Assembly (NCBI GenBank): GCA_021736445.1
Contig: JAIPGA010000006.1
Location: forward strand, 1 to 54,726
Direction: 5' to 3'
From: Synergistales bacterium
GTDB lineage: Bacteria; Synergistota; Synergistia; Synergistales; Aminiphilaceae
DNA: 54,726 nucleotides
Positions within the stretch are counted from its first letter, which is position 1, and each line of letters begins with the position of its first letter. Shown piece after piece: positions 4,314 to 34,002 of this stretch. Both the position numbers and the translations under genes were made by a program. The notes under the pieces are model-generated. The model was not told where the DNA came from. It searched no databases and saw nothing but the letters and a program-made list of their open reading frames with translations.

Positions 4314-4337
4314 GCGATATCGGGAACACACTGCCGA

Positions 4338-4366
4338 GGGGGCGCCTCTGATGCGCCCCCCTTTTT
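4338..4366 (+). terminator. Terminator-like hairpin between the binding protein and ATPase genes
   Basis: Stem GGGGGCGC (4338-4345) with GCGCCCCC (4353-4360), a seven-base loop, then C and TTTTT at 4362-4366. It sits inside the transporter operon. It probably attenuates transcription and stabilises the upstream message, so the binding protein is made in excess over the membrane and ATPase subunits. Confidence 0.75.
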
Positions 4367-4441
4367 CTATACCCCACCGCAGAGATCCTTTCACGCCGAG
4401 CTGTTCGGAATGCAGCAGAAGAGGAAGAAGGTGTCACTCCT

Positions 4442-6004
4442 TTGCAGAACACCAGAGAACCTATTGTCACCATGAGGGGTATCTCCAAATCCTTTCTCGG
4501 CAAACTCGCCAACGACAGCATCGATTTCGATGTGCGGCCCGGAGAGGTCCACGCCCTTCTGGGCGAGAACGGAGCCGGCAAGAGCACCCTGATGAACGTG
4601 CTCTGCGGCCTCTACCACCCTGATCGGGGCGAAATCCGCATCAATGGAACACCCCACTCCTTTTCGCATCCCAAGGACGCCATCAACGCCGGCATCGGCA
4701 TGGTCCACCAGCATTTCATGCTGGTGCCGGTCCAGACGGTCTGGGAAAACCTCATCCTCGGGCAGGAGTCCCATCCCTTCCTCCTCCGACCCCACCGCAT
4801 CATCCGGACTATCGAATCCCTTTCCAGACAGTACGGTCTGCATGTCGACCCCGAAGCAAAGATCTGGCAGCTCTCCCTTGGAGAACAGCAGCGTGTGGCA
4901 ATCCTGAAAATGCTCTATCGGAACGCCGAAACCCTGATTCTCGACGAACCAACGGCGGTCCTGACACCGCAGGAAACGGAACGGCTCTTTGCCACCATCC
5001 AGACCATGCGCTCCGAGGAACACGGCGTCATCTTCATCACCCACAAACTGGACGAGGTGATGCGTACCGCCGATCGGGTGACCATCCTGCGGGGCGGGAG
5101 ACGGGTCACCACCGTGGACACCGGGGATACCTGTCAGGAGGAGCTCGCCGAATTGATGGTGGGCAAGAAGGTGGTGCCCGTGGTCAACCGGACATCCCTG
5201 CCTGCCGGCCGCTCCCTGCTCCGGGCGGAGCGGATCACCGCCTGGAACGACAAGGACTTCCCAGCCGTCAAGGAGCTCTCCCTGGAGCTGAAGGGCAACG
5301 AGATCCTCGGGATCGCGGGCATCGACGGCAATGGCCAGCGGGAGCTCTGCGAGGCCCTCGCCGGGCTGCGCCCGCTACGCTCCGGCGCGGTGCGTTTTGA
5401 AGGAAAGGACATGACCGGCCGGCCGGCGCGGGACTTTATCGACGCCGGGATTTCCTATATCCCCGCCGACAGGAAGGGAACCGGACTGATCGCGACGATG
5501 AATCTTCGGGAAAACAGCGTGCTCCGCGACTACTGGAACCCGCCTTTCGCCAGGGGCATCTTCATCAACTGGGAGGCTGTGGCCGGTCATACCGGTTCGC
5601 TGGTGGAACGATACAGCGTGAGCGCACCTTCGCTGGATGTGCCCGTGCGGATGCTCTCGGGCGGCAACCTCCAGAAGCTCATGCTGGGCCGCGAGCTGAC
5701 GGGAACCCCCAGGGCGATCATCGCCATGCAGCCCACCTGGGGGCTGGACGTGGGCGCCACCACCTTTGTCCGGGAGACACTGCTCCAGCAGAGGGAACGG
5801 GGGGCGGGGATCCTTTTGATCTCCGAGAATCTCGAGGAGCTCCTGGCTCTCTCCGACCGCCTGGCGGTGATCCACGCCGGAAGGATCATGGGGACCGTCA
5901 CCGACACATCGGCGGTGACGGAACAACAGCTCGGCCGGATGATGGCGGGTACGCCGATCTCCGAACTGAATATGGAAAGGGATGTTCGGGACCATGCACA
6001 TTGA
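4442..6004 (+). CDS. Nucleoside/BMP-family ABC transporter ATP-binding protein (two fused ABC domains)
   Basis: 520 residues with two ATPase domains, as in the sugar/nucleoside (RbsA/YufO-like) class. Domain 1 has Walker A GENGAGKST (about residues 40-48), Q-loop VHQHFM, signature LSLGEQQR and Walker B LILDEPT. In domain 2 the Walker A is degenerate (GIDGNGQRE), the signature is LSGGNLQK, and the Walker B Glu is replaced (AMQPTWGLD). These are normal traits of this family, not decay. It energises nucleoside uptake with the two permeases downstream. The TTG at 4442 is used because family members carry several residues before the MRGISKSF strand; the ATG at 4472 is an alternative. Confidence 0.88.
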   Translation: MQNTREPIVTMRGISKSFLGKLANDSIDFDVRPGEVHALLGENGAGKSTLMNVLCGLYHPDRGEIRINGTPHSFSHPKDAINAGIGMVHQHFMLVPVQTVWENLILGQESHPFLLRPHRIIRTIESLSRQYGLHVDPEAKIWQLSLGEQQRVAILKMLYRNAETLILDEPTAVLTPQETERLFATIQTMRSEEHGVIFITHKLDEVMRTADRVTILRGGRRVTTVDTGDTCQEELAELMVGKKVVPVVNRTSLPAGRSLLRAERITAWNDKDFPAVKELSLELKGNEILGIAGIDGNGQRELCEALAGLRPLRSGAVRFEGKDMTGRPARDFIDAGISYIPADRKGTGLIATMNLRENSVLRDYWNPPFARGIFINWEAVAGHTGSLVERYSVSAPSLDVPVRMLSGGNLQKLMLGRELTGTPRAIIAMQPTWGLDVGATTFVRETLLQQRERGAGILLISENLEELLALSDRLAVIHAGRIMGTVTDTSAVTEQQLGRMMAGTPISELNMERDVRDHAH

Positions 6005-7058
6005 ACGCCGGTACGACGCACCAGGGTGGACATCCTTCGTGATCCCCACCGTCGCCGTTCTGGTGGCCCTTCTCCTCGGAGGGATGCTGATCTCGCTGAT
6101 GGGCGTCTCGCCGGTCACAGCCTACATGGAGATGTTCAAAGGGGCGCTGGGCGACAGCTATGGTCTCTCGGAGACCATCGTCAAGGCGATCCCACTGATC
6201 CTGGCGGGGATCGCCGTAGCCCTCGCCTTTTCCATGACCCTCTGGAATATCGGCGCCGAGGGACAGCTTGTGATGGGCGCCCTGGCATCCGCTGCCCTTG
6301 TGCGACATGTAACGGTGGACAACTGGTTCGTGATGTTCTGCCTCATGTTCCTCGCCGCCGGCATCGCCGGGGGGCTCTGGGCAGCCCTCACCGGGTATCT
6401 GAAAGCCCGCTGGAACGTCAACGAGATCATCACCACGCTGATGATGAACTACATCGCCCTCCTTGGCCTGGACTATTTCGTCTACGGCCCCTGGAGGGAT
6501 CCCACAAGCCTTGGATTCCCCATGACGCCGCCCTTTCCCGAGGCGGCCCGGATTCCTCAGCTCTTCGGGACGCGGGTCCATCTGGGGATCCTTCTGGCGC
6601 TGCTCTTTGCCGTTCTCTACCGGGTACTCATGCGGTGGACCCAATGGGGTTTCGAGATACGTGTCACCGGCGAGAACCCCAGGGGAGCCGAATACGCCGG
6701 GATCAACACAACGCGGAATGTGGTGCTGGTCATGTTTCTTTCCGGTGCCGTCGCCGGCCTCGCGGGCATGTGCGAACTCGCCGGCCTTCAAGGGAGGCTC
6801 CAGCCCGGATTCTCGGTGGGCTACGGCTACACGGCGATCATTGTGGCCTGGCTGGCGCGTCTCCACCCCGTGGGGATCATCGTGGTCTCTTTCCTGATGG
6901 GGGCCCTTCTGGTGGGAGGGGACACGCTGCAGATCGTCATGGGGCTTCCCCTGTCCAGCGTACAGGTTCTGCAGGGGCTGATCCTCTTTTCCGTTCTCGG
7001 CGGGGACTTCTTCCGCCGCTATAGAATCCGGTTCCCGGGCAAAGGGGGCAGGGCGTAA
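5982..7058 (+). CDS. Nucleoside ABC transporter permease, first subunit
   Basis: 358 residues, an integral membrane protein of the BPD_transp_2 family (YufP-like). About nine hydrophobic segments are visible, beginning at residues 13-38, with the family motif ALAFSMTLWNIGAEGQLVMG at about 77-96 and FEIRVTGENPRGAEYAGI as the ATPase-coupling loop. It overlaps the end of the ATPase gene by 23 bases. The ATG at 5994 is an alternative start: the upstream GGAAAGG (5974-5980) lies almost against the ATG at 5982 but 13 bases from 5994. It forms the channel together with the next gene. Confidence 0.88.
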   Translation: MFGTMHIERRYDAPGWTSFVIPTVAVLVALLLGGMLISLMGVSPVTAYMEMFKGALGDSYGLSETIVKAIPLILAGIAVALAFSMTLWNIGAEGQLVMGALASAALVRHVTVDNWFVMFCLMFLAAGIAGGLWAALTGYLKARWNVNEIITTLMMNYIALLGLDYFVYGPWRDPTSLGFPMTPPFPEAARIPQLFGTRVHLGILLALLFAVLYRVLMRWTQWGFEIRVTGENPRGAEYAGINTTRNVVLVMFLSGAVAGLAGMCELAGLQGRLQPGFSVGYGYTAIIVAWLARLHPVGIIVVSFLMGALLVGGDTLQIVMGLPLSSVQVLQGLILFSVLGGDFFRRYRIRFPGKGGRA

Positions 7059-22662: not shown

Positions 22663-22691
22663 ATTATAGAAGCCCAGGGGCATCAATGCAA
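22663..22691 (-). promoter_or_regulatory. Predicted tRNA-Gly promoter, overlapping the end of the upstream gene
   Basis: On the minus strand: -35 TTGCAT (22691-22686), 17-bp spacer, consensus -10 TATAAT (22668-22663). The -35 box lies within the last codons of the RumA-family gene. Confidence 0.65.
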
Positions 22692-24083
22692 GCGCCAATT
22701 ATTGCATTCACTCTCCCGGGGCCCCGTTTTCCGCAGGTCCCTCTGCAACGTCACCACGGACTCCACATGATAGGTCTGGGGGAACATATCGAAGAGACGC
22801 ATCCGGGGCATCCTGTACCCACCTCGCTCCACAAGGACACGGAGGTCCCGGGCAAGCGTAGCGGGATTGCAGGAAACATAGACCACCGTCTCCGGCCCGG
22901 CGCTCTGGATCCATTGGAGCAGTTCCGGCGTACAGCCGCTCCTGGGCGGATCGAGGACAACGCACTGGGGGCACCGTTCCATCCTCCTCACGGCCGCCGT
23001 GACGTCATCGCAGACAAAGGACACGTTCGACGCACCGAGGGCGGCGCCGTTACGCCGGGCATCCTTGACAGCCGCGTTCTGTCCCTCCACCGCCACCACC
23101 TCCCCTACATGAGGCGCCAGCATCAGGGCCAGCACGCCGACACCGGAAAAGAGCTCCACCACCCTTTCGCAGCCGCAGCGATCCACCTCGGCAAGGACAT
23201 AGTTGAAGAGCCGCTCCGCCTGCAGGGTGTTCACCTGGAAAAAGGACTCCATATGAAAGGCAAACCGGAGACCGCAGAGACACTCCGCAAGCGAGGGCTC
23301 CCCGTGCATGCTCCTGTAACGGCGCTCTCCGGGCAACCGGCCGAAGACGGACGCGGAGGCACCGTACTCCCGGAGCGCTCCATACAGCCTGTCCAGCTCC
23401 CTTTCGGAGAACGGTGACGCGTGGTCGATCCCGAGAGCCACATGCCCCGTGCGCACCCCCGTACGGAGGCGCAGTGCGACTCCTTCACTCCCTTTGTGCT
23501 CTCCAAGGGCACCCTGCATCCCTTCCAGAAGCTCAGGAAGATCCTGGAGCAGCCGTTCCAGGGGAGGGGCAAGGACGGGACACCGGGAAAGGGGAACCAC
23601 AGATCTGCTCTTCTCCTGATAGAACCCAACACTCGGCCGCCGGGATCCCGCCGGATACCAGCCCCGCAGGATCGCATGGTTCCGATAGCCGAAGCGATCC
23701 GGGCTTGGCTGACAGAGAGGGATCCCCTCCTCGGGAACGATCCCGCCGCCGATCCTTCTGAAGTGATCTTCCAGAATCGCCTGCTTCAGTCTCATCTGCA
23801 AGGTCGGCGCGGCATGCTGGAGATGACAGCCGCCACAGCTGCCGTAGTGGCTGCAGGGCGGAGCGATACGGAAGGGACTCGACCTGTGGATCTCCAGCAC
23901 CTCTCCATAGGCATAGCTCCTCCGTTCCCGGATGGTCCTGGCGATCACCCGTTCCCCGGGGAGCGCCCCGGGAAGAAAGACCACCTTCCGGCTCTCCGGT
24001 TCGCGGCCGATCCCCTCACCGCGGCTGTTGACAGCGGAAACCTCGAATGTTCTTGCCTGTTCATGCATACGCCTCAGCTCCAT
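22683..24083 (-). CDS. RumA/RlmD-family 23S rRNA (or tRNA) uracil-C5 methyltransferase
   Basis: 466 residues. The enzyme methylates C5 of a uridine with SAM. An N-terminal TRAM-like domain (about 8-65) is followed by a [4Fe-4S] site made by Cys77, Cys83, Cys86 and Cys168, then the SAM-binding part with ELFSGVGVLALMLA and VVLDPPRSGC, and the nucleophile Cys in VYVSCNPATLARD. The cluster cysteines place it in the RumA/RlmD class. Family members include 23S U1939, U747 and tRNA U54 enzymes, so the target is not certain. ATG 24068 is an alternative start. It lies between the kor operon terminator and tRNA-Gly. Confidence 0.88.
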   Translation of the reverse strand: MELRRMHEQARTFEVSAVNSRGEGIGREPESRKVVFLPGALPGERVIARTIRERRSYAYGEVLEIHRSSPFRIAPPCSHYGSCGGCHLQHAAPTLQMRLKQAILEDHFRRIGGGIVPEEGIPLCQPSPDRFGYRNHAILRGWYPAGSRRPSVGFYQEKSRSVVPLSRCPVLAPPLERLLQDLPELLEGMQGALGEHKGSEGVALRLRTGVRTGHVALGIDHASPFSERELDRLYGALREYGASASVFGRLPGERRYRSMHGEPSLAECLCGLRFAFHMESFFQVNTLQAERLFNYVLAEVDRCGCERVVELFSGVGVLALMLAPHVGEVVAVEGQNAAVKDARRNGAALGASNVSFVCDDVTAAVRRMERCPQCVVLDPPRSGCTPELLQWIQSAGPETVVYVSCNPATLARDLRVLVERGGYRMPRMRLFDMFPQTYHVESVVTLQRDLRKTGPRESECNNWRLH

Positions 24084-24213: not shown

Positions 24214-24759
24214 CTACTTCACCAGGGCGTACCCCTCTTCAAAGGCCTTGGCGTTCAGCTCCTCCGTTCCCCTGGGAACCCTGTCGAGGATGGCGTTCTT
24301 GATGGACTCCGGCTTGAAAAGCCCCTTGCGCTCCAGGAACTTCGCCGCAGCACCGAGAGCGACCATATTCGTCACGATCATCTTCCCGATCTTGTCCCTG
24401 GCGGTGCGCACGATGGGAAGACGGTGGACCTCCCCATCGATTTCAGGGATATCGGTAACAAAGAAATCATCGAGAATGACAACCCCGCCGGGTTTGGTGT
24501 CACCGTGGTAATCACCGCAGGCCTCCTGGGTAAGGATGATCTGCAGATCAGGCGCCGTTGCCTTGGGATAATCGATCTCGCTCCGGGAGACCACAACCTC
24601 CGATTTGGAGGATCCGCCCCGGGCCTCCGGCCCGTAGGACTGGCTCTGCACCGCCAGCAGCCCCTCATGGAGCACCGCGGCTTCTCCAAGGATCACGGCG
24701 GAAAGGATAACGCCTTGACCGCCGGAACCGGCGACACGAATCTCAAAGCGATCACTCAT
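24214..24759 (-). CDS. korC: 2-oxoacid:ferredoxin oxidoreductase gamma subunit (2-oxoglutarate type)
   Basis: 181 residues of the OFOR gamma family. It opens with RVAGSGGQGVILSAVILGEA and has the YGPEARGGSSKSEVVVS motif, both typical of this subunit, which helps bind CoA and completes the complex. It is last in korDABC, four bases after the beta gene. The 2-oxoglutarate label comes from the alpha subunit's resemblance to KorA; it is not readable from this subunit alone. Confidence 0.88.
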   Translation of the reverse strand: MSDRFEIRVAGSGGQGVILSAVILGEAAVLHEGLLAVQSQSYGPEARGGSSKSEVVVSRSEIDYPKATAPDLQIILTQEACGDYHGDTKPGGVVILDDFFVTDIPEIDGEVHRLPIVRTARDKIGKMIVTNMVALGAAAKFLERKGLFKPESIKNAILDRVPRGTEELNAKAFEEGYALVK

Positions 24760-24763
24760 GATG

Positions 24764-25579
24764 CTACCCCCTCACCCGTTCGATGAGCTGCTCGTACTCC
24801 GCCACGAACTCCGGAGTGTCCTTTTCAACAAACTCACCGGTTACAATCTTGTCCTGCAGCTCTTCAGCAGCCATCTTCTCCGCCTTGGCTTTGGGAACGC
24901 TCTTATCCCTGAGTCGGTTGATGTTGTCCACAGGCTTGGGGATCTTGTTCCGCCGGCCGAACTGTGTATGACAGAAGGTCATGATCTCCACCACGGAAAA
25001 GCCCTTGTTTTCGATCCCCTTCTTGATGTACTTCTCGCAGATATTGGGCTGCGCCACAGTGGACCGTGCCACATAGGAGGCGCCGGCACCGGCGGCAAGC
25101 TCGCAGAGGTTGAAATTGGGCTCGATGGCGCCGTAGGGAGCCGTGGAAGCCTTGGCCCCGATAGGCGTTGTCGGCGAAGACTGCCCGCCGGTCATGCCGT
25201 AGATGTTGTTGTTCATGATCACGGCGGTGATATCGATGTTCCGCCGTGCGGCGTGGATGAAGTGGTTGCCGCCGATGGCGCTGCAGTCTCCGTCACCCAT
25301 CACGTCGACGATGGTCAGCTCGGGATTGGCCAGCTTGATGCCGGTGGCGAAGGCCAGCGAACGGCCGTGGGTGGTGTGCACCGTACAGGCATCGATGTAT
25401 CCCGGCATACGGCTGGAACAGCCGATCCCCGAGGCGATGACCGTCTCCTCGGGCTTCTTGCCCGTGTCAACCAGGGAACGGAGGATTGCGTGCATGATAA
25501 TGCCGTGGCCGCAACCCGGGCACCAGATATGCGGGAAGAACCGCGTCCGCAACCAGTCCATTACTTCTGGGCGGGGCAT
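24764..25579 (-). CDS. korB: 2-oxoacid:ferredoxin oxidoreductase beta subunit (thiamine-diphosphate binding)
   Basis: 271 residues. The catalytic half binds thiamine diphosphate and one [4Fe-4S] cluster. Cluster ligands: Cys20 and Cys23 (CPGCGHG), Cys54 (GIGCSS), and a later Cys in IMTFCHTQ. The ThDP motif runs from GDGDCSAIG to [11 protein letters not shown]. The complex oxidatively decarboxylates a 2-oxoacid to acyl-CoA and reduces ferredoxin in the cytoplasm. The start ATG at 25579 follows the alpha stop by two bases. Confidence 0.92.
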   Translation of the reverse strand: MPRPEVMDWLRTRFFPHIWCPGCGHGIIMHAILRSLVDTGKKPEETVIASGIGCSSRMPGYIDACTVHTTHGRSLAFATGIKLANPELTIVDVMGDGDCSAIGGNHFIHAARRNIDITAVIMNNNIYGMTGGQSSPTTPIGAKASTAPYGAIEPNFNLCELAAGAGASYVARSTVAQPNICEKYIKKGIENKGFSVVEIMTFCHTQFGRRNKIPKPVDNINRLRDKSVPKAKAEKMAAEELQDKIVTGEFVEKDTPEFVAEYEQLIERVRG

Positions 25580-25581
25580 GG

Positions 25582-26715
25582 CTATACAACCTCCTTAATT
25601 TTCTCGAGAATCTCGGAGGGTTTGAAAAGCTCTCCGTTGACAAGTGTCTGCTGGACAACCTCAACGCGCCCGCAGGAGGCTCGTTCGACTTCGTGTACCA
25701 TCTGGCCGCAGTTCAGTTCCGGCACGATGACCGTCTTGGCCGTATCCAGCTGCGCCTGAAGTTCTTTATCCGGGAAGGGCCACAGGGTCACGGGACGGAA
25801 GTATCCCACCTTGTGCCCGGCTGCGCGGGCCTCGCGCACTGCGCTGAGGCCGGTGCGGGCCACGCTGCCGTACCCCAGCACGATGACCTCGGCATCCTCG
25901 ATGCTTTCCGTATCGTATTTGATGATGTCGTCACGGAACCGCTCGACCTTCCGCATCACCCGCAGCATCTTCTGTTCGATCTCGGGAGCCTTGTTGGTCG
26001 GGAATCCCCACTCGTTATGGGTGAGCCCCGTGACGTGCCAGCGGTATCCGTCGCCGAAACCGGCCATGGCGGGGATGTCATCCTTGGGATCGGCCTTGTA
26101 GGGGACGAAGTCCGAGGGGGAGACCTCCGGCTTCTTCCGGTCTACAAGTGCAATGGAATCGCTCTCGGGGACGATGACCCGCTCCCGCATGTGGCCCAGC
26201 ACCTCGTCGCTGAGGATGATCACCGGCTGGCGGAACCGCTCTGCCAGGTTGAACGCATCGATCGCCAGCTCGTAGCACTCCTGCACCGACGAGGGGCAGA
26301 GTGCGATGGTGGCGTGGTCGCCGTGGGTTCCCCAGCGGGCCTGCATCACATCCTGCTGGGAGATCTTGGTGGGGAGCCCGGTGGAGGGACCGCCACGCAT
26401 CACATCGACCACCACAATGGGGACCTCCGCCTGGTAGGCGAGCCCCAGATTCTCCTGCTTCAGCGAGAAACCGGGCCCCGAGGTGGCGGTCAGCGATTTT
26501 TTCCCTGTCAGGGACGCGCCGATGGTGGCCGCGATGCTGGCGATCTCGTCTTCCATCTGGATAAAACGGCCATCTCGTTTCGGCAGCTCCTTCGACATCG
26601 TTTCGGCGATCTCGGAGGACGGCGTGATGGGGTATCCGCCGAAGAATCGGCACCCGGCGGCGAGGGCTCCCTGGGCGAGCGCTACATTGCCCTGCCAAAA
26701 TTCCGTCTTAGGCAT
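25582..26715 (-). CDS. korA: 2-oxoacid:ferredoxin oxidoreductase alpha subunit (2-oxoglutarate type)
   Basis: 377 residues. Domain I and II of OFOR: GCRFFGGYPITPSSEIAE near residue 20, MEDEIASIAATIGASLTGKK, TSGPGFSLKQEN, VDVMRGGPSTGLPTK and RWGTHGDH. This pattern is that of KorA of 2-oxoglutarate synthases, and differs from the VorB-type alpha at 52131-53204. The ATG at 26715 has AGGAG ten bases upstream; a GTG at 26724 sits too close to that site. It overlaps the ferredoxin gene by eight bases. Confidence 0.9.
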   Translation of the reverse strand: MPKTEFWQGNVALAQGALAAGCRFFGGYPITPSSEIAETMSKELPKRDGRFIQMEDEIASIAATIGASLTGKKSLTATSGPGFSLKQENLGLAYQAEVPIVVVDVMRGGPSTGLPTKISQQDVMQARWGTHGDHATIALCPSSVQECYELAIDAFNLAERFRQPVIILSDEVLGHMRERVIVPESDSIALVDRKKPEVSPSDFVPYKADPKDDIPAMAGFGDGYRWHVTGLTHNEWGFPTNKAPEIEQKMLRVMRKVERFRDDIIKYDTESIEDAEVIVLGYGSVARTGLSAVREARAAGHKVGYFRPVTLWPFPDKELQAQLDTAKTVIVPELNCGQMVHEVERASCGRVEVVQQTLVNGELFKPSEILEKIKEVV

Positions 26716-26929
26716 CCGTTCCACGCTCCTTTACCGTTATTGCCAGATCCGGGCATATATTGACGCACTGCATGCACCCGATGCAATCATCCATGCGGGC
26801 CGGCTCACTTTTCATCTTGTCGTCAAGCTCGAGAACGTTCTTGGGACAGACCGAGATGCACAGCTCACATCCCTTGCACCAACCCTTGTTGATCGTGACT
26901 GTGAATTGCTTACTCACTCGTTGCACCAT
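26708..26929 (-). CDS. korD: Ferredoxin-like delta subunit of the oxidoreductase, 2x[4Fe-4S]
   Basis: 73 residues with two CxxCxxCxxxCP motifs: Cys18/21/24/28 and Cys49/52/55/59. It passes electrons from the beta subunit cluster to soluble ferredoxin. It is the first gene of the korDABC operon. The ATG at 26929 directly abuts GGAAGG, so a downstream GTG (26917) may be used instead. Confidence 0.9.
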   Translation of the reverse strand: MVQRVSKQFTVTINKGWCKGCELCISVCPKNVLELDDKMKSEPARMDDCIGCMQCVNICPDLAITVKERGTDA

Positions 26930-27070: not shown

Positions 27071-27100
27071 CAAGAAAAAGGAGAGGGGCATCCCCTCTCC
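27071..27100 (-). terminator. Intrinsic terminator of the amino-acid dehydrogenase operon
   Basis: On the minus strand, GGAGAGGGG (27100-27092) and CCCCTCTCC (27088-27080) form a perfect 9-bp stem with a 3-base loop, followed by TTTTTCTTG. It separates this operon from the kor promoter. Confidence 0.88.
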
Positions 27101-27126: not shown

Positions 27127-28281
27127 TCAGACGACCGCCGGTTCCAGGATCAGCTCGCCTTTGGCGAAGCGTCGGTAGTGCAGCATCTCGATTGGAATGG
27201 AGGGCTCCTGCCCATTGATCAGTTCGGCCATGAGCGGCCCCGTAATGGTGGCGAACATGAACCCGTGGCCGGAATAGCCGACAGAGAGATAGAACCCCTT
27301 GATTCCGTCGGCCTCGCCGAGAATGGGCTGCTTGTCGGGGGTCATGTTGTACTGGCCGGACCACTGCCTGACAACCCTGACCTCCCTGGTGGCAGGAAGG
27401 AGCCGGGTGAACTTCCGGGACATCTTCTCCAGGAACTCCCAGGTGTTGCCGTTGGCCATGTCGTCGGGATGCCCTTCGGGGCTGCAGCCGCCGATGATCG
27501 AGCCGTTGGGGCGCTGCTGGATATAGAAGTTGCCGGTGAAGCTCATCAGCATGGGCGGACAGAGGCCGTACTCCACCGGCTCGGTGACGATGATCTGGTG
27601 CCGTTCGGAGTAGTTGGGCAGCTCGATGCCGGCCATCTTGGCCACCTGCTGGGCGTACCCGCCGGCGCAGTTCACCACCACCGGCGTGTCGATCTCGCCG
27701 CGGGTGGTCTCCACACCGGCCACCCGTCCCTTGTCCACCTTGATGCCCGTGCATTCGGTGAACTTGAGAAAGGTGACGCCCAGGCGCTTGGCGGCTTCGT
27801 GGTAGGCGTAGGTGGTCAGGAAGGGATCGGCGTGGCCGTCCCTGTCGTGATAGAAAAAGCCCGCCGCGTCCTCGGCCCAGAGGCCGGGAGCGATCTCGCA
27901 GGCCTCCTCCCTGGACAGCTCCCGGGAGGCGATGCCCATTCGGTTCTGCAGACCTACGCTCTGTTTCAGCTGCTGGTACTCCTTGTCGCCGTAGGCGATC
28001 ATGATGTAGCCACCCTGATGCAGGTCGATCTTCATGCCCAGTTCCTCTTCGAGGTTTTCAAAGTTCTCCAGGCAGGCCAGACCAAGACGGCAGTTCATCT
28101 CTGTTCCCCACTGCGCCCTGATGCCGGCGCCGCAGCGGCCGGAGGAACCGGAGCAGAGGGAATCCTTTTCAAGGACAACCACATCCTTGATGCCGAGTTT
28201 GGCCAGATTGTAGGCCAGAGAGCAGCCCTGCACGCCGCTCCCGATGATCACCGCATCGGCGCTCTTCTTCCACTCGGCCAT
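27127..28281 (-). CDS. FAD-dependent amino-acid dehydrogenase catalytic (beta) subunit
   Basis: 384 residues, DAO-superfamily flavoprotein. The Rossmann motif GSGVQGCSLAYNLAKLG is at about residues 14-30, and VVLEKDSLCSGSSGRCGAG follows. The C-terminal SVGYSGHGFMFA is the FAD-contact strand of HcnC, sarcosine oxidase beta and proline dehydrogenase beta proteins. It likely oxidises an amino or imino acid (proline, hydroxyproline, sarcosine, glycine or an opine). The substrate cannot be told from sequence. The ATG at 28281 overlaps the TGA of the preceding small iron-sulfur gene. It is the last gene of a five-gene operon. Confidence 0.85.
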   Translation of the reverse strand: MAEWKKSADAVIIGSGVQGCSLAYNLAKLGIKDVVVLEKDSLCSGSSGRCGAGIRAQWGTEMNCRLGLACLENFENLEEELGMKIDLHQGGYIMIAYGDKEYQQLKQSVGLQNRMGIASRELSREEACEIAPGLWAEDAAGFFYHDRDGHADPFLTTYAYHEAAKRLGVTFLKFTECTGIKVDKGRVAGVETTRGEIDTPVVVNCAGGYAQQVAKMAGIELPNYSERHQIIVTEPVEYGLCPPMLMSFTGNFYIQQRPNGSIIGGCSPEGHPDDMANGNTWEFLEKMSRKFTRLLPATREVRVVRQWSGQYNMTPDKQPILGEADGIKGFYLSVGYSGHGFMFATITGPLMAELINGQEPSIPIEMLHYRRFAKGELILEPAVV

Positions 28282-28562
28282 CAGTCGTCGCCCCCCTCGG
28301 CCAGCAAACCGAGCTTGACGGGCTTGCTGGGCGGGCGGAAGGTGCCCGGCGGAACCTCGCTGTAGGGGGTGCCGGTCATCCTGGAGATCTCCCGCAGGAT
28401 GATGTCCCGGCACCCGCGGCCCTGGCAGGGGCCCATCCCGACCCGCAGCACCCGCTTCAGCTCGTCGAATGTGTCGTATCCCTTGGCGATCCACTCGCGG
28501 ATCTCGCCCATGGTGACCTCTTCGCAGCGGCAGACGACGATTTCGTTGCTCTTGTCAGCCAT
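28281..28562 (-). CDS. BFD-like [2Fe-2S] protein of the dehydrogenase complex
   Basis: 93 residues. It matches the bacterioferritin-associated-ferredoxin-like [2Fe-2S] domain: Cys11 and Cys13 (CRCE), then Cys46 and Cys51 (GPCQGRGC). In HcnB and sarcosine oxidase alpha this domain is normally fused to the NAD(P)/FAD subunit; here it is a separate gene between the 4Fe-4S subunit and the beta subunit. This position matches the small subunit gene of archaeal dye-linked L-proline dehydrogenase clusters, as I recall them. Confidence 0.85.
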   Translation of the reverse strand: MADKSNEIVVCRCEEVTMGEIREWIAKGYDTFDELKRVLRVGMGPCQGRGCRDIILREISRMTGTPYSEVPPGTFRPPSKPVKLGLLAEGGDD

Positions 28563-28564
28563 CT

Positions 28565-29071
28565 CTACACCACCTTCACGGCACGTACGTCGTTGACCTT
28601 GTCCCTGGGGACGCTGACGTGGACCACCAGGGTGCTGTCTTTCCAGGGTTCCTGCACGTTCACGACGTTGCTCCGGCAGACTTCCCGGCCTTCCCGGTCC
28701 AGGCAGGCGACCTCCTGGCCTTTCTCGGGGCGGGGCAGCATCTCGTAGGGGAGCTTCATCAGGGCTTCGTCTTTGCCGCCGTAGGTGAGGTCCACGACGA
28801 AGCAGGCGAGGCCGGGGCACTTGGCGACGCACATGGCGCAGCCGGTGCACTTGCTGTAGTCGATGGTGGGCACGTCGTTGATGTCTTTGAAGGGCTGCAC
28901 GGCGCCGGTGGGGCAGCTGGTGTGGCAGGGGTTGCAGGGGATCCGCTGGGGGCATTCGATGATGACGAGTCCGTTGGCTTTGTTCTCCCACAGATCTTTC
29001 GGCGGGGTGACGGCGCCGGCACGCTCTTCGGTGAGCACGCCGCTGTTGAAGAGCTGTTCTTTCTCTGTCAT
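28565..29071 (-). CDS. 4Fe-4S electron-transfer subunit of the dehydrogenase complex
   Basis: 168 residues. Two clusters are likely: Cys40, 46, 49 and 53 (with CNPCHTSCP), and Cys75, 78, 81 and 85 (CTGCAMCVAKCP). A beta-rich C-terminal part (about 95-168) has no cysteine set, apart from two isolated Cys. It probably relays electrons between flavin subunits. The ATG at 29071 follows GGGAGG by nine bases. It sits between the alpha subunit and the BFD-like gene. Confidence 0.85.
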   Translation of the reverse strand: MTEKEQLFNSGVLTEERAGAVTPPKDLWENKANGLVIIECPQRIPCNPCHTSCPTGAVQPFKDINDVPTIDYSKCTGCAMCVAKCPGLACFVVDLTYGGKDEALMKLPYEMLPRPEKGQEVACLDREGREVCRSNVVNVQEPWKDSTLVVHVSVPRDKVNDVRAVKVV

Positions 29072-29075
29072 GGCT

Positions 29076-30176
29076 TTATACCTCCCAGCAGGTCTGGCAG
29101 ACTTCTTCGAGCCCGCTGCGGATCTTGGCGCCCACTTCTCCGGCACGGAGGTGGTTCAGCCGCTCGCGCAGATGCCTGGATTTCTCCCTGATGTCTTCTT
29201 CGTTCCCGTGCCGCAGGGAGGCGGCGGCGAAGACTCCGGCGATCTGTCCTTCCACCATGGCCGACGAGGCTTCTTCGATTCCGGCGGCGTCTCCGGCGAC
29301 CCAGAAATCGGGGTTGCTGGTCCGCATGTCGTCGCTCCGCAGCGGCACGTATCCGCAGAGCTGCGGGACGAAACGCATCTCTGCATCGGCTTGCCAGAGG
29401 AGTTCGCAGGTGGGGGTGAGGCCGACGGCCATGCAGATGATGTCGCAGTCGATGTTCTTGGGATCGCCCACGGGCTGGAAGTTCTCGTTGATCTCCTGGA
29501 TGACGGCGCCTTCTACGATGCCCTCGCCGTAGGCTTCGCTGACGGTGTGGCGCAGGTAGATGGGAACGCCCAGGCGGCGGATCTTCGCGGCGTGTACCCA
29601 GTACCCGCCGACTTTGGGCATGGCTTCCACGACGCCGGCGATGTCCACGCCTGCCTGCATGAGCTGGTAGCTGACGATGAGGCCGATGTTCCCTGCTCCT
29701 ACCATGAGCACCCGGTCACCGGGCAGGACGCCGTAGACGTTCATCAGGGTCTGGACGGCTCCGGCTCCGTAGACGCCGGGCATGTCGTTGTTGGGGAAGG
29801 GGATGAGCCGCTCCTGCGCTCCGGTGGCGACGATGACTTTCCTGGGTTTCATCCGGAAGTATTCGTCTTCGCCGATGGTACAGGACACCACGCCGTCTTC
29901 TTTGTAGTACCCTGTGGCGGTACAGTTGGAGAGGATGGTGACCTTGTCTTTCAGTCCTTCCAGCTCGTCAAAGAGGATGTCGCCGATCTTGTACCCCCGG
30001 GTCCCGGCGTGCTCCTCCCGGGAACCGAAAAACTTGTGGGTCTGCTTGATGAGCTGGCCGCCGAGCCGAAGGTCGCTGTCCACGACGGTGACCTCCGCTC
30101 CCAGTTTCGCTGCTTCCACGGCCGCCGAAAGTCCGGCCGGGCCTCCTCCGATTACGAGTACCTCTGTCTGACGCAC
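29076..30176 (-). CDS. NAD(P)/FAD-dependent oxidoreductase (alpha) subunit of the dehydrogenase complex
   Basis: 366 residues. FAD-binding GGGPAGLSAAVEAAKLG at about 10-26, ATGAQERLIPFP near 122, a second dinucleotide motif VGAGNIGLIVSYQL near 160, and WVAGDAAGIEEAS near 300, as in HcnB, SoxA and opine oxidase A proteins. It would accept electrons from the catalytic flavin subunit and pass them to NAD(P)+ or another acceptor. The HcnA-like domain and the BFD domain, fused in many relatives, are separate genes on either side. Confidence 0.87.
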   Translation of the reverse strand: MRQTEVLVIGGGPAGLSAAVEAAKLGAEVTVVDSDLRLGGQLIKQTHKFFGSREEHAGTRGYKIGDILFDELEGLKDKVTILSNCTATGYYKEDGVVSCTIGEDEYFRMKPRKVIVATGAQERLIPFPNNDMPGVYGAGAVQTLMNVYGVLPGDRVLMVGAGNIGLIVSYQLMQAGVDIAGVVEAMPKVGGYWVHAAKIRRLGVPIYLRHTVSEAYGEGIVEGAVIQEINENFQPVGDPKNIDCDIICMAVGLTPTCELLWQADAEMRFVPQLCGYVPLRSDDMRTSNPDFWVAGDAAGIEEASSAMVEGQIAGVFAAASLRHGNEEDIREKSRHLRERLNHLRAGEVGAKIRSGLEEVCQTCWEV

Positions 30177-30189
30177 CTGATCTACCCCC

Positions 30190-30510
30190 TTACGCCTTCT
30201 CCGGGCTGATGACGCCTTTGCCCTTCTGTGTCTCCACCTGCATTCCCTCGCTCAGGGGCGTCACGCAGGTACGCACGTTCGGTACGCCGTCGACGACCAT
30301 GAAGCAGGAAGAACACTTTCCGATGGCGCAGAAAAACCCCCGCGTCCGTTCCATCTCCGGCGTGACCCGGTAGGTCCGGACACCGTTGGCGTGCAGCGCC
30401 GCCGCGATGGGCTCGCCTTCAAAACCTTCCATGGGTTTCCCGTCAAAGGAGAACGTCACGCGACGTCCGTGGGAAAAATCCAGTATCGGATGCTCCTCGA
30501 TCAGTTTCAA
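30190..30510 (-). CDS. HcnA-like [2Fe-2S] ferredoxin subunit of the dehydrogenase complex
   Basis: 106 residues. Plant-type [2Fe-2S] ligands are at Cys61, 66, 69 and 82 (FFCAIGKCSSC...RTC), the layout of HcnA and of the N-terminus of sarcosine oxidase alpha. It includes FDGKPMEGFEGEPIAAAL. The TTG at 30510 is chosen because AAGGAGGGG lies seven bases upstream and earlier codons have no family match. It is the first gene of the five-gene operon, 13 bases before the alpha gene. Confidence 0.85.
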   Translation of the reverse strand: MKLIEEHPILDFSHGRRVTFSFDGKPMEGFEGEPIAAALHANGVRTYRVTPEMERTRGFFCAIGKCSSCFMVVDGVPNVRTCVTPLSEGMQVETQKGKGVISPEKA

Positions 30511-30667: not shown

Positions 30668-31324
30668 TTACCCGATATCGGGGCTGCGGAGATAATTGCC
30701 CTGGATCGTGTCCGGGGCAACCGCCTGATCGATCCGTCTCCCGCCGATGCGCGCCACCGTCCCTCCCCGGGCCGTAATGCCGTCTATCACCGGCATTGCG
30801 GCCCCTTCAAGGAACGAAAGAGAGGCCCGGTCGTTACAGAGGACCGTGGTGCGCTCCTCCGATGCAAGAATCTTTAGACATTCGTCTTCCGGCATCACCG
30901 TCTCGCCGAGAATGGAGCAGAGCCCCCCTTCATCGGTGCAGAGGAACCCCCCAGTAAAGACAAGATTCCTTCTGGCCCGAACGACAGGATAGACCCTCCT
31001 GCCGGGGACCGGAAGCTGCCACGCCATGGCCTCCAGCGTACTCACCGGGCAGACGGGAATCCCCAGTCCATGCGCCAGGGCGGCCCCGTAGGCGAGGCCC
31101 ACCCTGATCCCAGTGAAGTAGCCGGGGCCGTTGGCGATGGCGATGAGGTCGAGATCCTGAAGGGAACAGCCAAGAGAGGCAAAGAGATGATCCACCAGAC
31201 CGGGAAGCGCGGAGGCCTGCCGCCGGCCGGAAACAAGCGTGGTCTCGCCGATACAGCTACCATCTTCTACGAGCCCGATATTGGTCGCACGCAGCGAACA
31301 GTCGATTCCAAGGGTCACACCCAT
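30668..31324 (-). CDS. tsaB: tRNA threonylcarbamoyladenosine biosynthesis protein TsaB
   Basis: 218 residues of the ASKHA fold. TsaB is a non-catalytic partner of TsaD in making t6A37 of ANN-decoding tRNAs. Visible: LGIDCSLRATNIGLV at the start, AIANGPGYFTGIRVGLAYG (the family GPGSFTGLRIG motif with Tyr for Ser) at about 64-82, and VYPVVRARRN. Its ATG overlaps the TsaE stop (ATGA). The C-terminal NYLRSPDIG is common in the family. Confidence 0.92.
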   Translation of the reverse strand: MGVTLGIDCSLRATNIGLVEDGSCIGETTLVSGRRQASALPGLVDHLFASLGCSLQDLDLIAIANGPGYFTGIRVGLAYGAALAHGLGIPVCPVSTLEAMAWQLPVPGRRVYPVVRARRNLVFTGGFLCTDEGGLCSILGETVMPEDECLKILASEERTTVLCNDRASLSFLEGAAMPVIDGITARGGTVARIGGRRIDQAVAPDTIQGNYLRSPDIG

Positions 31325-31830
31325 CACTCCACCTCCCTCTCCGCGGACGCGGCGTCCGCCCCCGCCAGGGCCGCCATGGCACCGTCCAGGGAGATCCATG
31401 CCCGGTTCCCCCGGGCGGTGAGACGACAGGATCGCGGGGCGTTCCACGGCTGCGTCCCGACACCTTCCCCGAAGGCAAGCGTGATGCGCCAGACATCACT
31501 GCCCGGGGGGCGGCGCCACCGTTCGGCCCATTCGACAAGGAGAAGCGCGCCCTCCCGGGCGTACTCCTCCAGTTCCAGCTCGCCCACCTCTTCCGGAGCA
31601 ATGCGGTAGAGGTCGGCATGGACCACATGGACGGTCCCTCTATACTCGTTGACCAGGGTGAACGATGGGCTCCTCGTCTCCGCTGTCCCCAGACGGGCTG
31701 CGATAGCCCGGACCAACTCCGTCTTCCCCGTCCCGAGTTCGCCGTCGAGCAACACAATGAGTCCTTCGTAGGCGGATTCCGCCAGAACGCGCCCCAACTG
31801 CTGCGTCTCGGCGAGATCCTCCAGATACAA
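31324..31830 (-). CDS. tsaE: tRNA threonylcarbamoyladenosine biosynthesis ATPase TsaE
   Basis: 168 residues. The P-loop GELGTGKT is at 30-37, with SPSFTLVNEYRG and HADLYRI, both TsaE family marks. It hydrolyses ATP in the TsaBDE complex that makes t6A. The TTG start at 31830 has AAGGAG six bases upstream. The C-terminal 20 residues (Ala/Asp-rich) extend past the usual core. It couples to tsaB by a 4-base overlap. Confidence 0.92.
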   Translation of the reverse strand: MYLEDLAETQQLGRVLAESAYEGLIVLLDGELGTGKTELVRAIAARLGTAETRSPSFTLVNEYRGTVHVVHADLYRIAPEEVGELELEEYAREGALLLVEWAERWRRPPGSDVWRITLAFGEGVGTQPWNAPRSCRLTARGNRAWISLDGAMAALAGADAASAEREVE

Positions 31831-31881
31831 TCGATACTCCTTCAGCCCTATCCCTCCGTCTCGATCAGGGTTTCCATACAG

Positions 31882-32112
31882 TCACTTCTTCCCCCGCGCC
31901 ATCAGGATCAGCAGAAGCGTCCCGCCCGCGAGCGCCGCCAGAACGGTGACCGCAGACCCCACAGGCCACCCTCGGTGCAGGGATTTGGTGGCCAGCAGAA
32001 AGCCCAGGGCGATCACAAAGGCACCCAGGGTGAACTTCAATCCCCTGATCCGGGTCTCCTCGGTGCGCCGTTCCTCCTCCTCCCAGTCCACGCGCCGTCT
32101 CTTTCTAGTCAT
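31882..32112 (-). CDS. Small two-helix membrane protein of unknown function
   Basis: 76 residues. A strongly charged N-terminus (about 1-25, Arg and Glu clusters) is followed by two hydrophobic helices (about 27-43 and 50-68) and a basic end (ARGKK). I do not recognise a family. It starts at ATG 32112, overlapping the end of nnr by eight bases, and precedes tsaE by 51 bases, so it is co-transcribed. The positive-inside pattern suggests both ends are cytoplasmic. Confidence 0.65.
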   Translation of the reverse strand: MTRKRRRVDWEEEERRTEETRIRGLKFTLGAFVIALGFLLATKSLHRGWPVGSAVTVLAALAGGTLLLILMARGKK

Positions 32113-33634
32113 CGGCGGGACACCCCAGGACCTTCGGGACAGCATGGGCGATCTCCGAGGCCAGCAGCCCCTCCTCGGAGCAGCTCTCCCCCGCCGCCTC
32201 TCCGGCCATGGCATGGAGGAGGGCGCCTGCGGCGGCCGCTCTCTCCGGCGGATGCCCCTTCGCCATCAGTGAGGCGATGACACCGCCCAGGACATCCCCG
32301 GAACCGGGGACCGCCAGCCGGGGGCCGCCCCGGTCCACCACAAAGACACGATGTGCATCGGCCACCAGGGTGTTCGCCCCTTTGAGCAGGCAGCAGCCGT
32401 ACCGTCCCGCCAACTGCCGGACGGCATCCATCCGTGCATCGGCGACACCGGCGACACTGCTCCCCAGCAGTCGGGCGGCCTCCCCTTCATGGGGGGTGAG
32501 GACGGTGTCACCGCGGAAGCGCCGCACCGTCTGCACAGCCAGGGCGTAGAGGGCATCGGCGTCAACAACCATGGGGATATCCAGCTCTTCCCACAGGGAG
32601 GCGCAAAGCTGGACAGTGGACTCCTCCCTGCCGCAGCCGGGGCCCAGCACCACCACATCCGCACGCTCCGTCCAGGCGCGGACCGTCTCCATTGCATCGG
32701 GGCCGAGCACATCGCCCGGACAGGCGCTCTGGACAACGGCCTCGGGGAGCTGGGCGGCACAGCTTCCGGCCGCCGCCTCCGGCACCAGCAGGACCACCAG
32801 CCCCGCTCCGGCCCGGAGCGCGCCGAGAGCGGTCAGCACCGGTGCGCTCCGGTAGAAGGCACTCCCACCGACCACAAGGACAACACCCTCCCGCGATTTG
32901 TGGGTGTCCTTCGCCCTTCCGGGATAGAAGGCCCGCAGCTCGGCGGGCTCCATCAGCGCGTACCCGCTCTCCTGGGGGAAGACCGCCTTCCCGGGCACGC
33001 CGATGGGCACAACCGTTATCTCCCCGGCCGCCTCCCGCGCAGGCATTGTGTAGAGACCGGCCTTGGCCCCCAGAAAGGTGGCGGTGAGGTCCGCCCGGAA
33101 GAAGAGATCTGCCCGTTCGCCTGTGGTCGCATCGATCCCGCTGGGGACATCCAGGGCCGCAGCGGGCGCACCGCAGTTGCGGCAGAAGGTGAGCAGACGC
33201 TCGATCTCGCCCCGCGGCGCCCCCTTGCTCCCGGTTCCCAGAAGGGCGTCGACAACCAGATCCGTCCTGTCGAGCAACCCTCCTATCTCGCGATCGGCCA
33301 GTGCGCCGGACAGATGGAGCGGAATCCCCAGACGCTCCGCGATGCCCCTGTTCAGCGCGGCATCCCCCCGATACCGCCCGGCCTCGGCCGTTGCGACGAC
33401 CACCGGCTCCACACCGTTGATCGCGAGGTGCCTGGCCGCCACGAATCCGTCACCGCCGTTGTTCCCCGGGCCGGCGAGGACCACGGCCCTCCGCGTCTTC
33501 GGGAAACGGCGCAGGATCTCCCGGACAGCCCCTCCTCCGGCGTTTTCCATCAGCAGTTCTCCGGGAATCTGCATGTCCTCGATGGCCCTGCGGTCCGCTT
33601 CACGTACCTGTTCCGCCGTATAGAGATGCCTCAT
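32105..33634 (-). CDS. nnr: Bifunctional NAD(P)H-hydrate epimerase / ADP-dependent NAD(P)H-hydrate dehydratase
   Basis: 509 residues, a fusion typical of bacterial Nnr/YjeF. The N-terminal epimerase domain (about 1-210) has AGPGNNGGDGFVAARHL. The C-terminal ribokinase-like dehydratase (about 220-500) has VVLGPGCG, LTPHEGEAARLL and VPGSGDVLGGVIASLMA. The enzyme repairs hydrated NADH and NADPH in the cytoplasm. The start overlaps acpS by four bases. Confidence 0.93.
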   Translation of the reverse strand: MRHLYTAEQVREADRRAIEDMQIPGELLMENAGGGAVREILRRFPKTRRAVVLAGPGNNGGDGFVAARHLAINGVEPVVVATAEAGRYRGDAALNRGIAERLGIPLHLSGALADREIGGLLDRTDLVVDALLGTGSKGAPRGEIERLLTFCRNCGAPAAALDVPSGIDATTGERADLFFRADLTATFLGAKAGLYTMPAREAAGEITVVPIGVPGKAVFPQESGYALMEPAELRAFYPGRAKDTHKSREGVVLVVGGSAFYRSAPVLTALGALRAGAGLVVLLVPEAAAGSCAAQLPEAVVQSACPGDVLGPDAMETVRAWTERADVVVLGPGCGREESTVQLCASLWEELDIPMVVDADALYALAVQTVRRFRGDTVLTPHEGEAARLLGSSVAGVADARMDAVRQLAGRYGCCLLKGANTLVADAHRVFVVDRGGPRLAVPGSGDVLGGVIASLMAKGHPPERAAAAGALLHAMAGEAAGESCSEEGLLASEIAHAVPKVLGCPADD

Positions 33635-34002
33635 TCTCTTCCCTCCAATACCACAACAGCAACCGCCATCCCCTCTTCATAGCTGATGCTGACAAAACTG
33701 GATGTCACCCCGCGACGCCGGAACATCCGCCCGACCCTCTCGTCGATGATCAGCGACGGGCCGTCACTCCCCCGTCGGAGCCCCACCCCGCGCAACCCCA
33801 GCGCGGCGAGCCCCTGCCCGCAGGCCTTGGCACAGGCCTCCCTGGCCGCGAAGGAGCCGGCCAGGGACTGGGCCATCCGATTCCCGCCACGGGCGTACTC
33901 CAGCTCTTCGTCCAGAAACACGCGCCGCAGAAAATGATCACTCCCTGCAGCCCGCGCCATTCTCCTGATTGAGCAGAGATCCACACCAACACCGACTATC
34001 AT
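33631..34002 (-). CDS. acpS: Holo-[acyl-carrier-protein] synthase
   Basis: 123 residues. AcpS transfers 4'-phosphopantetheine from CoA to apo-ACP. It has VGVDLCSIRRM (metal-binding Asp) at the start and SFAAREACAKACG with the second Glu, then SFVSISYEEGMAVA near the end. It is the first recognisable gene of the acpS-nnr-tsaE-tsaB run, a linkage common in bacteria. Confidence 0.93.
   Translation of the reverse strand: MIVGVGVDLCSIRRMARAAGSDHFLRRVFLDEELEYARGGNRMAQSLAGSFAAREACAKACGQGLAALGLRGVGLRRGSDGPSLIIDERVGRMFRRRGVTSSFVSISYEEGMAVAVVVLEGRE

What the first reader, a model, noticed from the sequence alone, without database searches (positions are those of the whole stretch)
27127..30510. Five-gene amino-acid dehydrogenase operon with every redox domain as a separate subunit
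The order is HcnA-like [2Fe-2S], NAD(P)/FAD alpha, double [4Fe-4S], BFD-like [2Fe-2S], FAD beta. In HcnABC, sarcosine oxidase and opine oxidase several of these are fused. The alpha/4Fe-4S/BFD/beta core has the same order as archaeal dye-linked L-proline dehydrogenase clusters (from memory), with the HcnA-like part detached. Substrate is unknown: proline, hydroxyproline, sarcosine, glycine or an opine are all possible. This is the least described multi-protein system in the window.
Basis: partly seen in the sequence, partly recalled or inferred. Interest (0 to 1): 0.6.

Follow-up and report, generated by a model that had tools for sequence, protein, structure and literature searches.

The report
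Modular five-subunit proline dehydrogenase, Synergistota
Five neighbouring bacterial genes encode the separated parts of one flavin and iron-sulphur enzyme that most likely oxidises the amino acid proline, and related genomes reuse the same four electron-carrying parts with a different substrate-binding part.

Summary
Five same-strand ORFs at 27127-30510 encode an HcnA-like [2Fe-2S] protein, a NAD(P)/FAD alpha, a double [4Fe-4S] protein, a BFD [2Fe-2S] protein and a DAO-family FAD beta. The order holds in 60 of 63 testable relatives (Synergistota, Clostridia and others), and all 16 predicted cluster-ligand cysteines are invariant in the aligned relatives. One Synergistota genome fuses the first four parts into a single 694-aa protein in the same order. 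By sequence and predicted fold, beta is closest to Pyrococcus horikoshii L-proline dehydrogenase beta (1Y56_B). Neighbours in relatives include hydroxyproline dehydratase (HypD), proline-type racemase, amino-acid transporters, an aldehyde:ferredoxin oxidoreductase (AOR) and 2-oxoglutarate:ferredoxin oxidoreductase. Classical proline dehydrogenase (PF01619) is absent from all 188 Synergistota genomes searched. Most likely this is an L-proline dehydrogenase of the archaeal alpha-beta-gamma-delta type with its HcnA-like domain detached. A new variant of a known kind; no activity has been tested.

The parts
30190..30510 (-). HcnA-like Fer2_4 [2Fe-2S] subunit, 106 aa, C-x4-C-x2-C-x12-C
   Evidence: Pfam PF13510 E 6e-31; 4 Cys invariant in 60 sequences; matches N-terminus of 1Y56_A
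29076..30176 (-). alpha subunit, Pyr_redox_2 (FAD plus a second dinucleotide site), 366 aa, no BFD and no GcvT domain
   Evidence: Pfam; PDB hits SoxA and 1Y56_A
28565..29071 (-). double [4Fe-4S] subunit, 168 aa
   Evidence: Pfam Fer4_7/Fer4_10; 8 Cys invariant in 65 sequences
28281..28562 (-). BFD-like [2Fe-2S] subunit, 93 aa, C-x-C-x32-C-x4-C
   Evidence: Pfam PF04324 and PF17806; matches C-terminus of 1Y56_A 411-491; 4 Cys invariant in 71 sequences
27127..28281 (-). beta subunit, DAO-family FAD catalytic subunit, 384 aa, with R-x-W FMN motif and GYSGHGFM motif
   Evidence: Pfam DAO E 3e-75; best PDB sequence hit 1Y56_B E 1.5e-77; best fold hit 1Y56_B, TM 0.92; motifs
27081..27097 (-). terminator-like hairpin after beta, followed by a T-run
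   Evidence: not above chance expectation; sequence read
26708..26929 (-). OorD-like ferredoxin subunit of 2-oxoacid:ferredoxin oxidoreductase; probably a separate transcription unit, conserved neighbour
   Evidence: next recognised gene after beta in 20 of 74 scored loci
25582..26724 (-). OorA-like 2-oxoglutarate:ferredoxin oxidoreductase alpha
   Evidence: NCBIfam PRK08659, 562.6 bits over cut-off 411
24764..25579 (-). OorB-like subunit
   Evidence: PRK09628, 297 bits, below its cut-off 364
24214..24759 (-). OorC-like gamma subunit
   Evidence: PRK08537, 194 bits, below its cut-off 235

Best explanation
The five genes encode one hetero-oligomeric dye-linked L-proline dehydrogenase that works like the archaeal alpha-beta-gamma-delta enzyme with its HcnA-like domain detached. 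Beta (FAD) oxidises L-proline to pyrroline-5-carboxylate. Electrons pass through FMN at the alpha/beta interface to the alpha FAD and the [2Fe-2S]/[4Fe-4S] subunits, and on to a soluble carrier. Pyrroline-5-carboxylate, which HypD also makes from hydroxyproline, opens to glutamate semialdehyde, is oxidised to glutamate (probably by an AOR-family enzyme), then goes to 2-oxoglutarate and, through the neighbouring OorDABC, to succinyl-CoA. The HcnA/alpha/[4Fe-4S]/BFD set is a general electron module that also serves a second, separately encoded beta (beta2). Shown here: gene set, order, cofactor motifs, module sharing pattern, gene context. Inferred: assembly, substrate, electron path, acceptor, AOR step.
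For: Beta is closest to L-proline dehydrogenase 1Y56_B by sequence and by fold of a confident model (pLDDT 86). It shares SGHGFM and the R-x-W motif with 1Y56_B, where sarcosine oxidase beta has Lys in place of that Met. Four-part fusion in the same order in G176. HypD (over cut-off) with its activase, proline racemase (Cys-Cys, Phe at the discriminating site) and transporters sit beside the set in many loci; T. litoralis proline dehydrogenase genes lie beside a proline racemase and a Pyr2C reductase. Group-1 beta and HypD co-occur in 72 of 86 versus 9 of 102 genomes. PF01619 is absent from 188 Synergistota and 12 Clostridia. The window's genome has HypD, activase, proline racemase and AOR but no recognisable P5C dehydrogenase. 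Shared module.
Against: No activity data. Identity to the characterised L-proline dehydrogenase is only 37%, and no characterised enzyme falls inside the beta clade; octopine dehydrogenase type 2 is also close to L-proline dehydrogenase yet does not use proline. In the window's own genome HypD and the racemase are on another contig, and the flanking genes are housekeeping genes plus OorDABC. Co-occurrence counts are not corrected for phylogeny. Purified complex composition is unknown.
Confidence: 0.66

Rival explanations
1. Same complex, but the substrate is another secondary or D-amino acid: D-proline, cis-4-hydroxy-D-proline or an opine-like N-substituted amino acid.
For: The beta family changes substrate readily; BjOdhB2 is close to L-proline dehydrogenase but oxidises octopine. 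Proline racemase lies beside several loci, so D-proline is plausible, most of all for beta2.
Against: Group-1 beta sits with HypD, which yields L-pyrroline-5-carboxylate and not a D-product, more often than with a racemase. Neighbouring racemases are mostly proline type (Phe), not hydroxyproline-epimerase type. I recognised no NAD-opine dehydrogenase beside the set, in contrast to the Ti plasmid locus, though neighbours were not all annotated.
Confidence: 0.2
2. A sarcosine, dimethylglycine or glycine dehydrogenase, with the AOR removing formaldehyde or glyoxylate.
For: Alpha, BFD and beta match sarcosine oxidase models; beta folds like sarcosine oxidase beta (rank 2).
Against: No folate-binding GcvT domain in the 366-aa alpha, no SoxD or SoxG; the Lys of sarcosine oxidase beta is Met; neighbours point to proline.
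Confidence: 0.08
3. The five ORFs are neighbours but do not form one enzyme; the small Fe-S proteins are general carriers.
For: Module and beta are sometimes apart (orphan beta2; beta placed upstream in L133).
Against: Fixed order in 60 of 63 loci, four-part natural fusion, concerted identity of the whole module, homologous purified complexes in archaea and proteobacteria.
Confidence: 0.04

Closest known systems
Archaeal alpha-beta-gamma-delta dye-linked L-proline dehydrogenase (T. profundus pdhAFXB; T. litoralis OCC_00347-00332)
   Same: Same four-part order alpha, gamma, delta, beta; same neighbours (proline racemase, pyrroline-2-carboxylate reductase)
   Different: HcnA-like domain is fused to the archaeal alpha; here it is its own gene with all four cysteines. 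Here also linked to HypD, AOR and OorDABC
P. horikoshii alpha4beta4 L-proline dehydrogenase PDH1 (1Y56; PH1363/PH1364)
   Same: Best sequence and fold match of beta; alpha holds HcnA-like, Pyr_redox and BFD parts in the same order
   Different: Three parts fused in alpha, the aligned HcnA-like part of PH1363 lacks the cysteines, no [4Fe-4S] protein; beta identity 37%
Opine dehydrogenase OdhABC and D-hydroxyproline dehydrogenase (alpha4beta4gamma4)
   Same: Separate HcnA-like gamma; R-x-W FMN motif; two betas sharing one alpha/gamma in Bradyrhizobium (OdhB1-C-A-B2)
   Different: BFD is fused to alpha and there is no [4Fe-4S] subunit; different operon context
HcnABC hydrogen cyanide synthase
   Same: HcnA-like protein plus alpha and beta homologues (from general knowledge)
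   Different: BFD fused in HcnB, no [4Fe-4S] protein (from general knowledge; not compared directly)
Heterotetrameric sarcosine oxidase SoxBDAG
   Same: HcnA-like, Pyr_redox and BFD (A3) parts in SoxA; SoxB fold
   Different: Fused alpha with folate domain, SoxD/SoxG present, Lys instead of Met in the SGHGF(M/K) motif

Membership tests
Archaeal alpha-beta-gamma-delta L-proline dehydrogenase | DAO-type beta most similar to L-proline dehydrogenase beta | tested here: met
Archaeal alpha-beta-gamma-delta L-proline dehydrogenase | gene order alpha, gamma, delta, beta | tested here: met
   window order against T. litoralis locus tags in PMC4364671
Archaeal alpha-beta-gamma-delta L-proline dehydrogenase | HcnA-like domain fused at the alpha N-terminus | tested here: not met
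   separate ORF 30190-30510; so not filed as a strict member
Archaeal alpha-beta-gamma-delta L-proline dehydrogenase | oxidises L-proline with dyes | not testable with these tools
   needs purified enzyme
Archaeal alpha-beta-gamma-delta L-proline dehydrogenase | beta falls in the same clade as characterised L-proline dehydrogenase | tested here: inconclusive
   long reference branches, no reference inside the clade
OpnDH/D-HypDH alpha4beta4gamma4 | BFD fused to alpha | tested here: not met
   alpha is 366 aa, BFD is a separate ORF
OpnDH/D-HypDH alpha4beta4gamma4 | separate HcnA-like subunit and R-x-W FMN motif | tested here: met
Heterotetrameric sarcosine oxidase | alpha with C-terminal folate (GcvT) domain, SoxD and SoxG | tested here: not met
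   Pfam scan of alpha and neighbouring ORFs
PutA/PRODH proline dehydrogenase | Pfam PF01619 | tested here: not met
   absent from the window's genome and from 188 phylum genomes

The most novel reading that the evidence does not exclude
A plug-in amino-acid oxidation system: one four-protein flavin/Fe-S electron module, kept nearly identical within a genome, serves interchangeable substrate subunits (beta1 for L-proline, beta2 possibly for D-proline). The next step, glutamate semialdehyde to glutamate, is done by an AOR-family aldehyde:ferredoxin oxidoreductase instead of an NAD-linked P5C dehydrogenase, giving a ferredoxin-linked anaerobic route from proline and hydroxyproline to succinyl-CoA.
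Probability: 0.35. Interest if true: 0.65.

Novelty: new variant of a known kind. Interest (0 to 1): 0.5.

Why it matters
Synergistota ferment amino acids, yet all 188 genomes searched lack classical proline dehydrogenase, and none has a P5C dehydrogenase above the TIGR01237 cut-off. This complex is the best candidate for how they, and a set of Clostridia, oxidise proline and hydroxyproline. It also shows a redox enzyme whose electron-transfer parts look like a reusable module, with near-identical copies of the module next to different catalytic subunits; that is genomic support for the subunit-exchange idea proposed from two Bradyrhizobium betas. The AOR step is testable with one enzyme assay.

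Tried and rejected
Sarcosine oxidase and HCN synthase: rejected on missing domains and on context. Dye-linked L-lactate dehydrogenase of Sulfurisphaera: looked promising from its four-gene operon, but it is an FMN enzyme of a different family. Beta tree with references: long reference branches, cannot assign the substrate. Plasmid searches for references: gave one intact Ti opine locus; the other Ti locus is broken into fragments and was left out. First region requests were one base too long. First alignment request had wrong coordinates. OorDABC in the same operon: judged unlikely as one transcript from the ~200-base gap and terminator-like hairpin, kept as conserved neighbour. Paper searches for Synergistota proline dehydrogenase and for AOR with P5C found nothing on point in the open library.
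Full report
OBSERVATION. Five ORFs lie in one direction on the minus strand between 30510 and 27127 with gaps of a few bases or a one-base overlap. Pfam assigns Fer2_4, Pyr_redox_2, Fer4 dicluster, Fer2_BFD/SO_alpha_A3 and DAO in that order. The HcnA-like ORF most likely starts at a TTG at 30510, shortly after AAGGAGG.

MORE THAN CHANCE. An alignment of 12 betas was used for a scan of named genomes. Of 63 loci with enough upstream DNA, 60 keep HcnA-alpha-[4Fe-4S]-BFD-beta, and every predicted cluster ligand is invariant: 4 of 4, 8 of 8 and 4 of 4 cysteines over 60, 65 and 71 sequences. The three exceptions are two loci with unrecognised genes and one with beta moved upstream (L133). The hosts are Synergistota (Acetomicrobium, Thermovirga and many MAGs, up to 71% identity), Clostridia (Alkaliphilus, Geosporobacter, Anaerosolibacter, Thermotalea, 52-55%) and single MAGs labelled as other phyla. 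The window is therefore most likely Synergistota. In genome G176 one 694-aa ORF contains Fer2_4 (19-94), Pyr_redox_2 (121-378), Fer4 dicluster (463-507) and BFD (612-660), next to a DAO gene. This natural fusion in the same order shows that the four small genes belong together.

WHAT IT IS. Beta's best solved relative is P. horikoshii L-proline dehydrogenase beta, 1Y56_B, by sequence (E 1.5e-77; about 37% identity) and by Foldseek of a confident AlphaFold model (E 9.5e-43, TM 0.92). 1Y56_A contains HcnA-like, Pyr_redox and BFD parts in the same order, but its aligned HcnA-like stretch lacks the cysteines. Beta carries the R-x-W motif that Watanabe and colleagues assign to FMN (PMC4575208), and shares SGHGFM with 1Y56_B, whereas sarcosine oxidase beta has Lys at that Met and beta2 and the Ti plasmid OdhB-like type 2 have Gln. 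That this Lys binds the substrate carboxylate in sarcosine oxidases is from my own knowledge.

ARCHAEAL COMPARISON. In T. litoralis the alpha-beta-gamma-delta enzyme genes are OCC_00347 (alpha), 00342 (gamma), 00337 (delta), 00332 (beta), matching T. profundus pdhA, pdhF, pdhX, pdhB, in a cluster with trans-3-hydroxyproline dehydratase, pyrroline-2-carboxylate reductase and a proline racemase (PMC4364671). Archaeal alpha N-termini (~120 residues) correspond to the HcnA-like gamma of opine and D-hydroxyproline dehydrogenases. I take gamma as the [4Fe-4S] and delta as the BFD-type protein from general knowledge; I did not read those sequences. The set fails the strict archaeal definition on the fused HcnA-like domain, and fails the OpnDH/D-HypDH definition because BFD is not fused to alpha.

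GENOMIC CONTEXT. Synergistota neighbours include HypD (NF043068, 1140 bits over cut-off 1100 in L036) and its activase, OCD/pyrroline-carboxylate-reductase-like proteins, proline racemase, TRAP and NSS transporters, and ferredoxin plus an AOR-family protein directly after beta. Clostridia show transporter-module-beta-ferredoxin-AOR. In the window's clade OorDABC follows, as in 20 of the 74 loci scored downstream. Racemases next to these genes have the Cys-Cys pair and, in all but one case, Phe at the position that separates proline racemase from hydroxyproline epimerase; L059 has Trp, as in the bifunctional T. litoralis enzyme. The S. meliloti controls gave Tyr (epimerase) and a Cys-Thr-type second residue (dehydratase), as expected.

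MISSING CLASSICAL ENZYMES. PF01619 is found in 0 of 188 Synergistota genomes and 0 of 12 Clostridia with this operon, while control genomes ring. The P5C dehydrogenase model TIGR01237 is never over its cut-off in the phylum, has no hit at all in the window's own genome (97.6% complete), and is over cut-off in 1 of 12 Clostridia. Weaker ALDH-superfamily hits exist in many genomes, so a divergent P5C dehydrogenase is not excluded there. AOR relatives occur in 71 genomes including the window's (C8:8735-10861, PF01314/PF02730). Group-1 beta co-occurs with HypD in 72 of 86 genomes against 9 of 102 without it (p 3e-27) and with AOR in 62 of 86 against 9 of 102 (p 4e-20). These tests ignore shared ancestry; adjacency in two phyla is the stronger argument. 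The window's genome holds HypD (1268 bits), its activase, a Cys-Cys proline racemase and TRAP genes together on contig C1.

MODULAR DESIGN. The window's genome has one alpha and two betas; so do G175 (one contig) and G182 (two contigs), each about 99% complete. The second beta (beta2, about 40% identical) often lies beside proline racemase or OCD without its own module. Where two modules exist, the stretch from HcnA to BFD is 99.6% (G020), 99.6% (G123), 97% (G017) and 94% (G137) identical in DNA between the beta1 and beta2 loci. In the first three, identity stops at the beta gene; in G137 it runs about 190 bases into beta. The genomes belong to three families. Homogenisation (or recent duplication) of the electron module next to different catalytic subunits supports a shared, interchangeable module, in line with Bradyrhizobium OdhB1-C-A-B2 and a similar beta-gamma-alpha-beta locus on a Ti plasmid. 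The function of beta2 is inferred only from its neighbours.

MECHANISM AND LIMITS. Proposed: L-proline to pyrroline-5-carboxylate on beta FAD; electrons through FMN, alpha FAD and the Fe-S subunits to a soluble carrier; pyrroline-5-carboxylate, also from HypD, to glutamate (AOR, inferred), to 2-oxoglutarate, to succinyl-CoA (OorDABC, neighbour). The acceptor is unknown. Proline oxidation has too high a potential to reduce ferredoxin or NAD easily on its own (general knowledge), so coupling inside the complex is possible but untested. The beta tree recovers separate beta1 and beta2 groups, but the characterised references are long branches outside them; it neither proves nor refutes the substrate.

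VERDICT. A real, conserved feature of Synergistota, best described as a fully split variant of the archaeal proline dehydrogenase/opine dehydrogenase kind. Novelty moderate; the module sharing and the AOR link are the parts a specialist would want to test.

Noticed in passing
L042:10804-13395, L123, L126, L136 and others; window genome C8:8735-10861: AOR-family protein (PF01314/PF02730) plus a small ferredoxin directly downstream of beta in Clostridia and some Synergistota; candidate glutamate-semialdehyde:ferredoxin oxidoreductase. In the window's genome the AOR gene is apart from the set.
   Followed up: partly
Window genome C53:2859-4010 (L053): Orphan second beta (44% identical) without its own module, on a contig with an SSS symporter, an M20-peptidase-like protein, a lysine-2,3-aminomutase-like protein and an OCD-family gene.
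   Followed up: partly
L037 vs L056, L038 vs L060, L034 vs L055, L044 vs L057: Four-gene electron module 94-99.6% identical in DNA between two loci of one genome while the adjacent betas differ strongly.
   Followed up: yes
L041, L046, L061, L063, L141: A third beta type (about 50% identical) with the five-gene set; four of the five loci show a molybdenum-hydroxylase-like protein and an NF045663-like protein next to it, and most an OCD-like gene, a PutP-like symporter or RpiR regulators; substrate unknown.
   Followed up: no
L066:12176-14257: Single 694-aa fusion of HcnA-like, alpha, double [4Fe-4S] and BFD parts in genome G176.
   Followed up: yes
window 30668-34002 and 22683-24083: tsaB/tsaE/nnrD/acpS-like genes upstream and an RlmD-like methyltransferase downstream are also found around the set in other Synergistota families (L033, L035, L038), suggesting an ancestral location.
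   Followed up: no
L156 (pTi_CFBP1898): Ti plasmid opine locus with beta-gamma-alpha-beta order, like the Bradyrhizobium two-beta cluster.
   Followed up: partly
L158 (pTiLBA1191) 3594-6111: Opine dehydrogenase alpha and beta genes broken into several short ORFs; left as they are.
   Followed up: no
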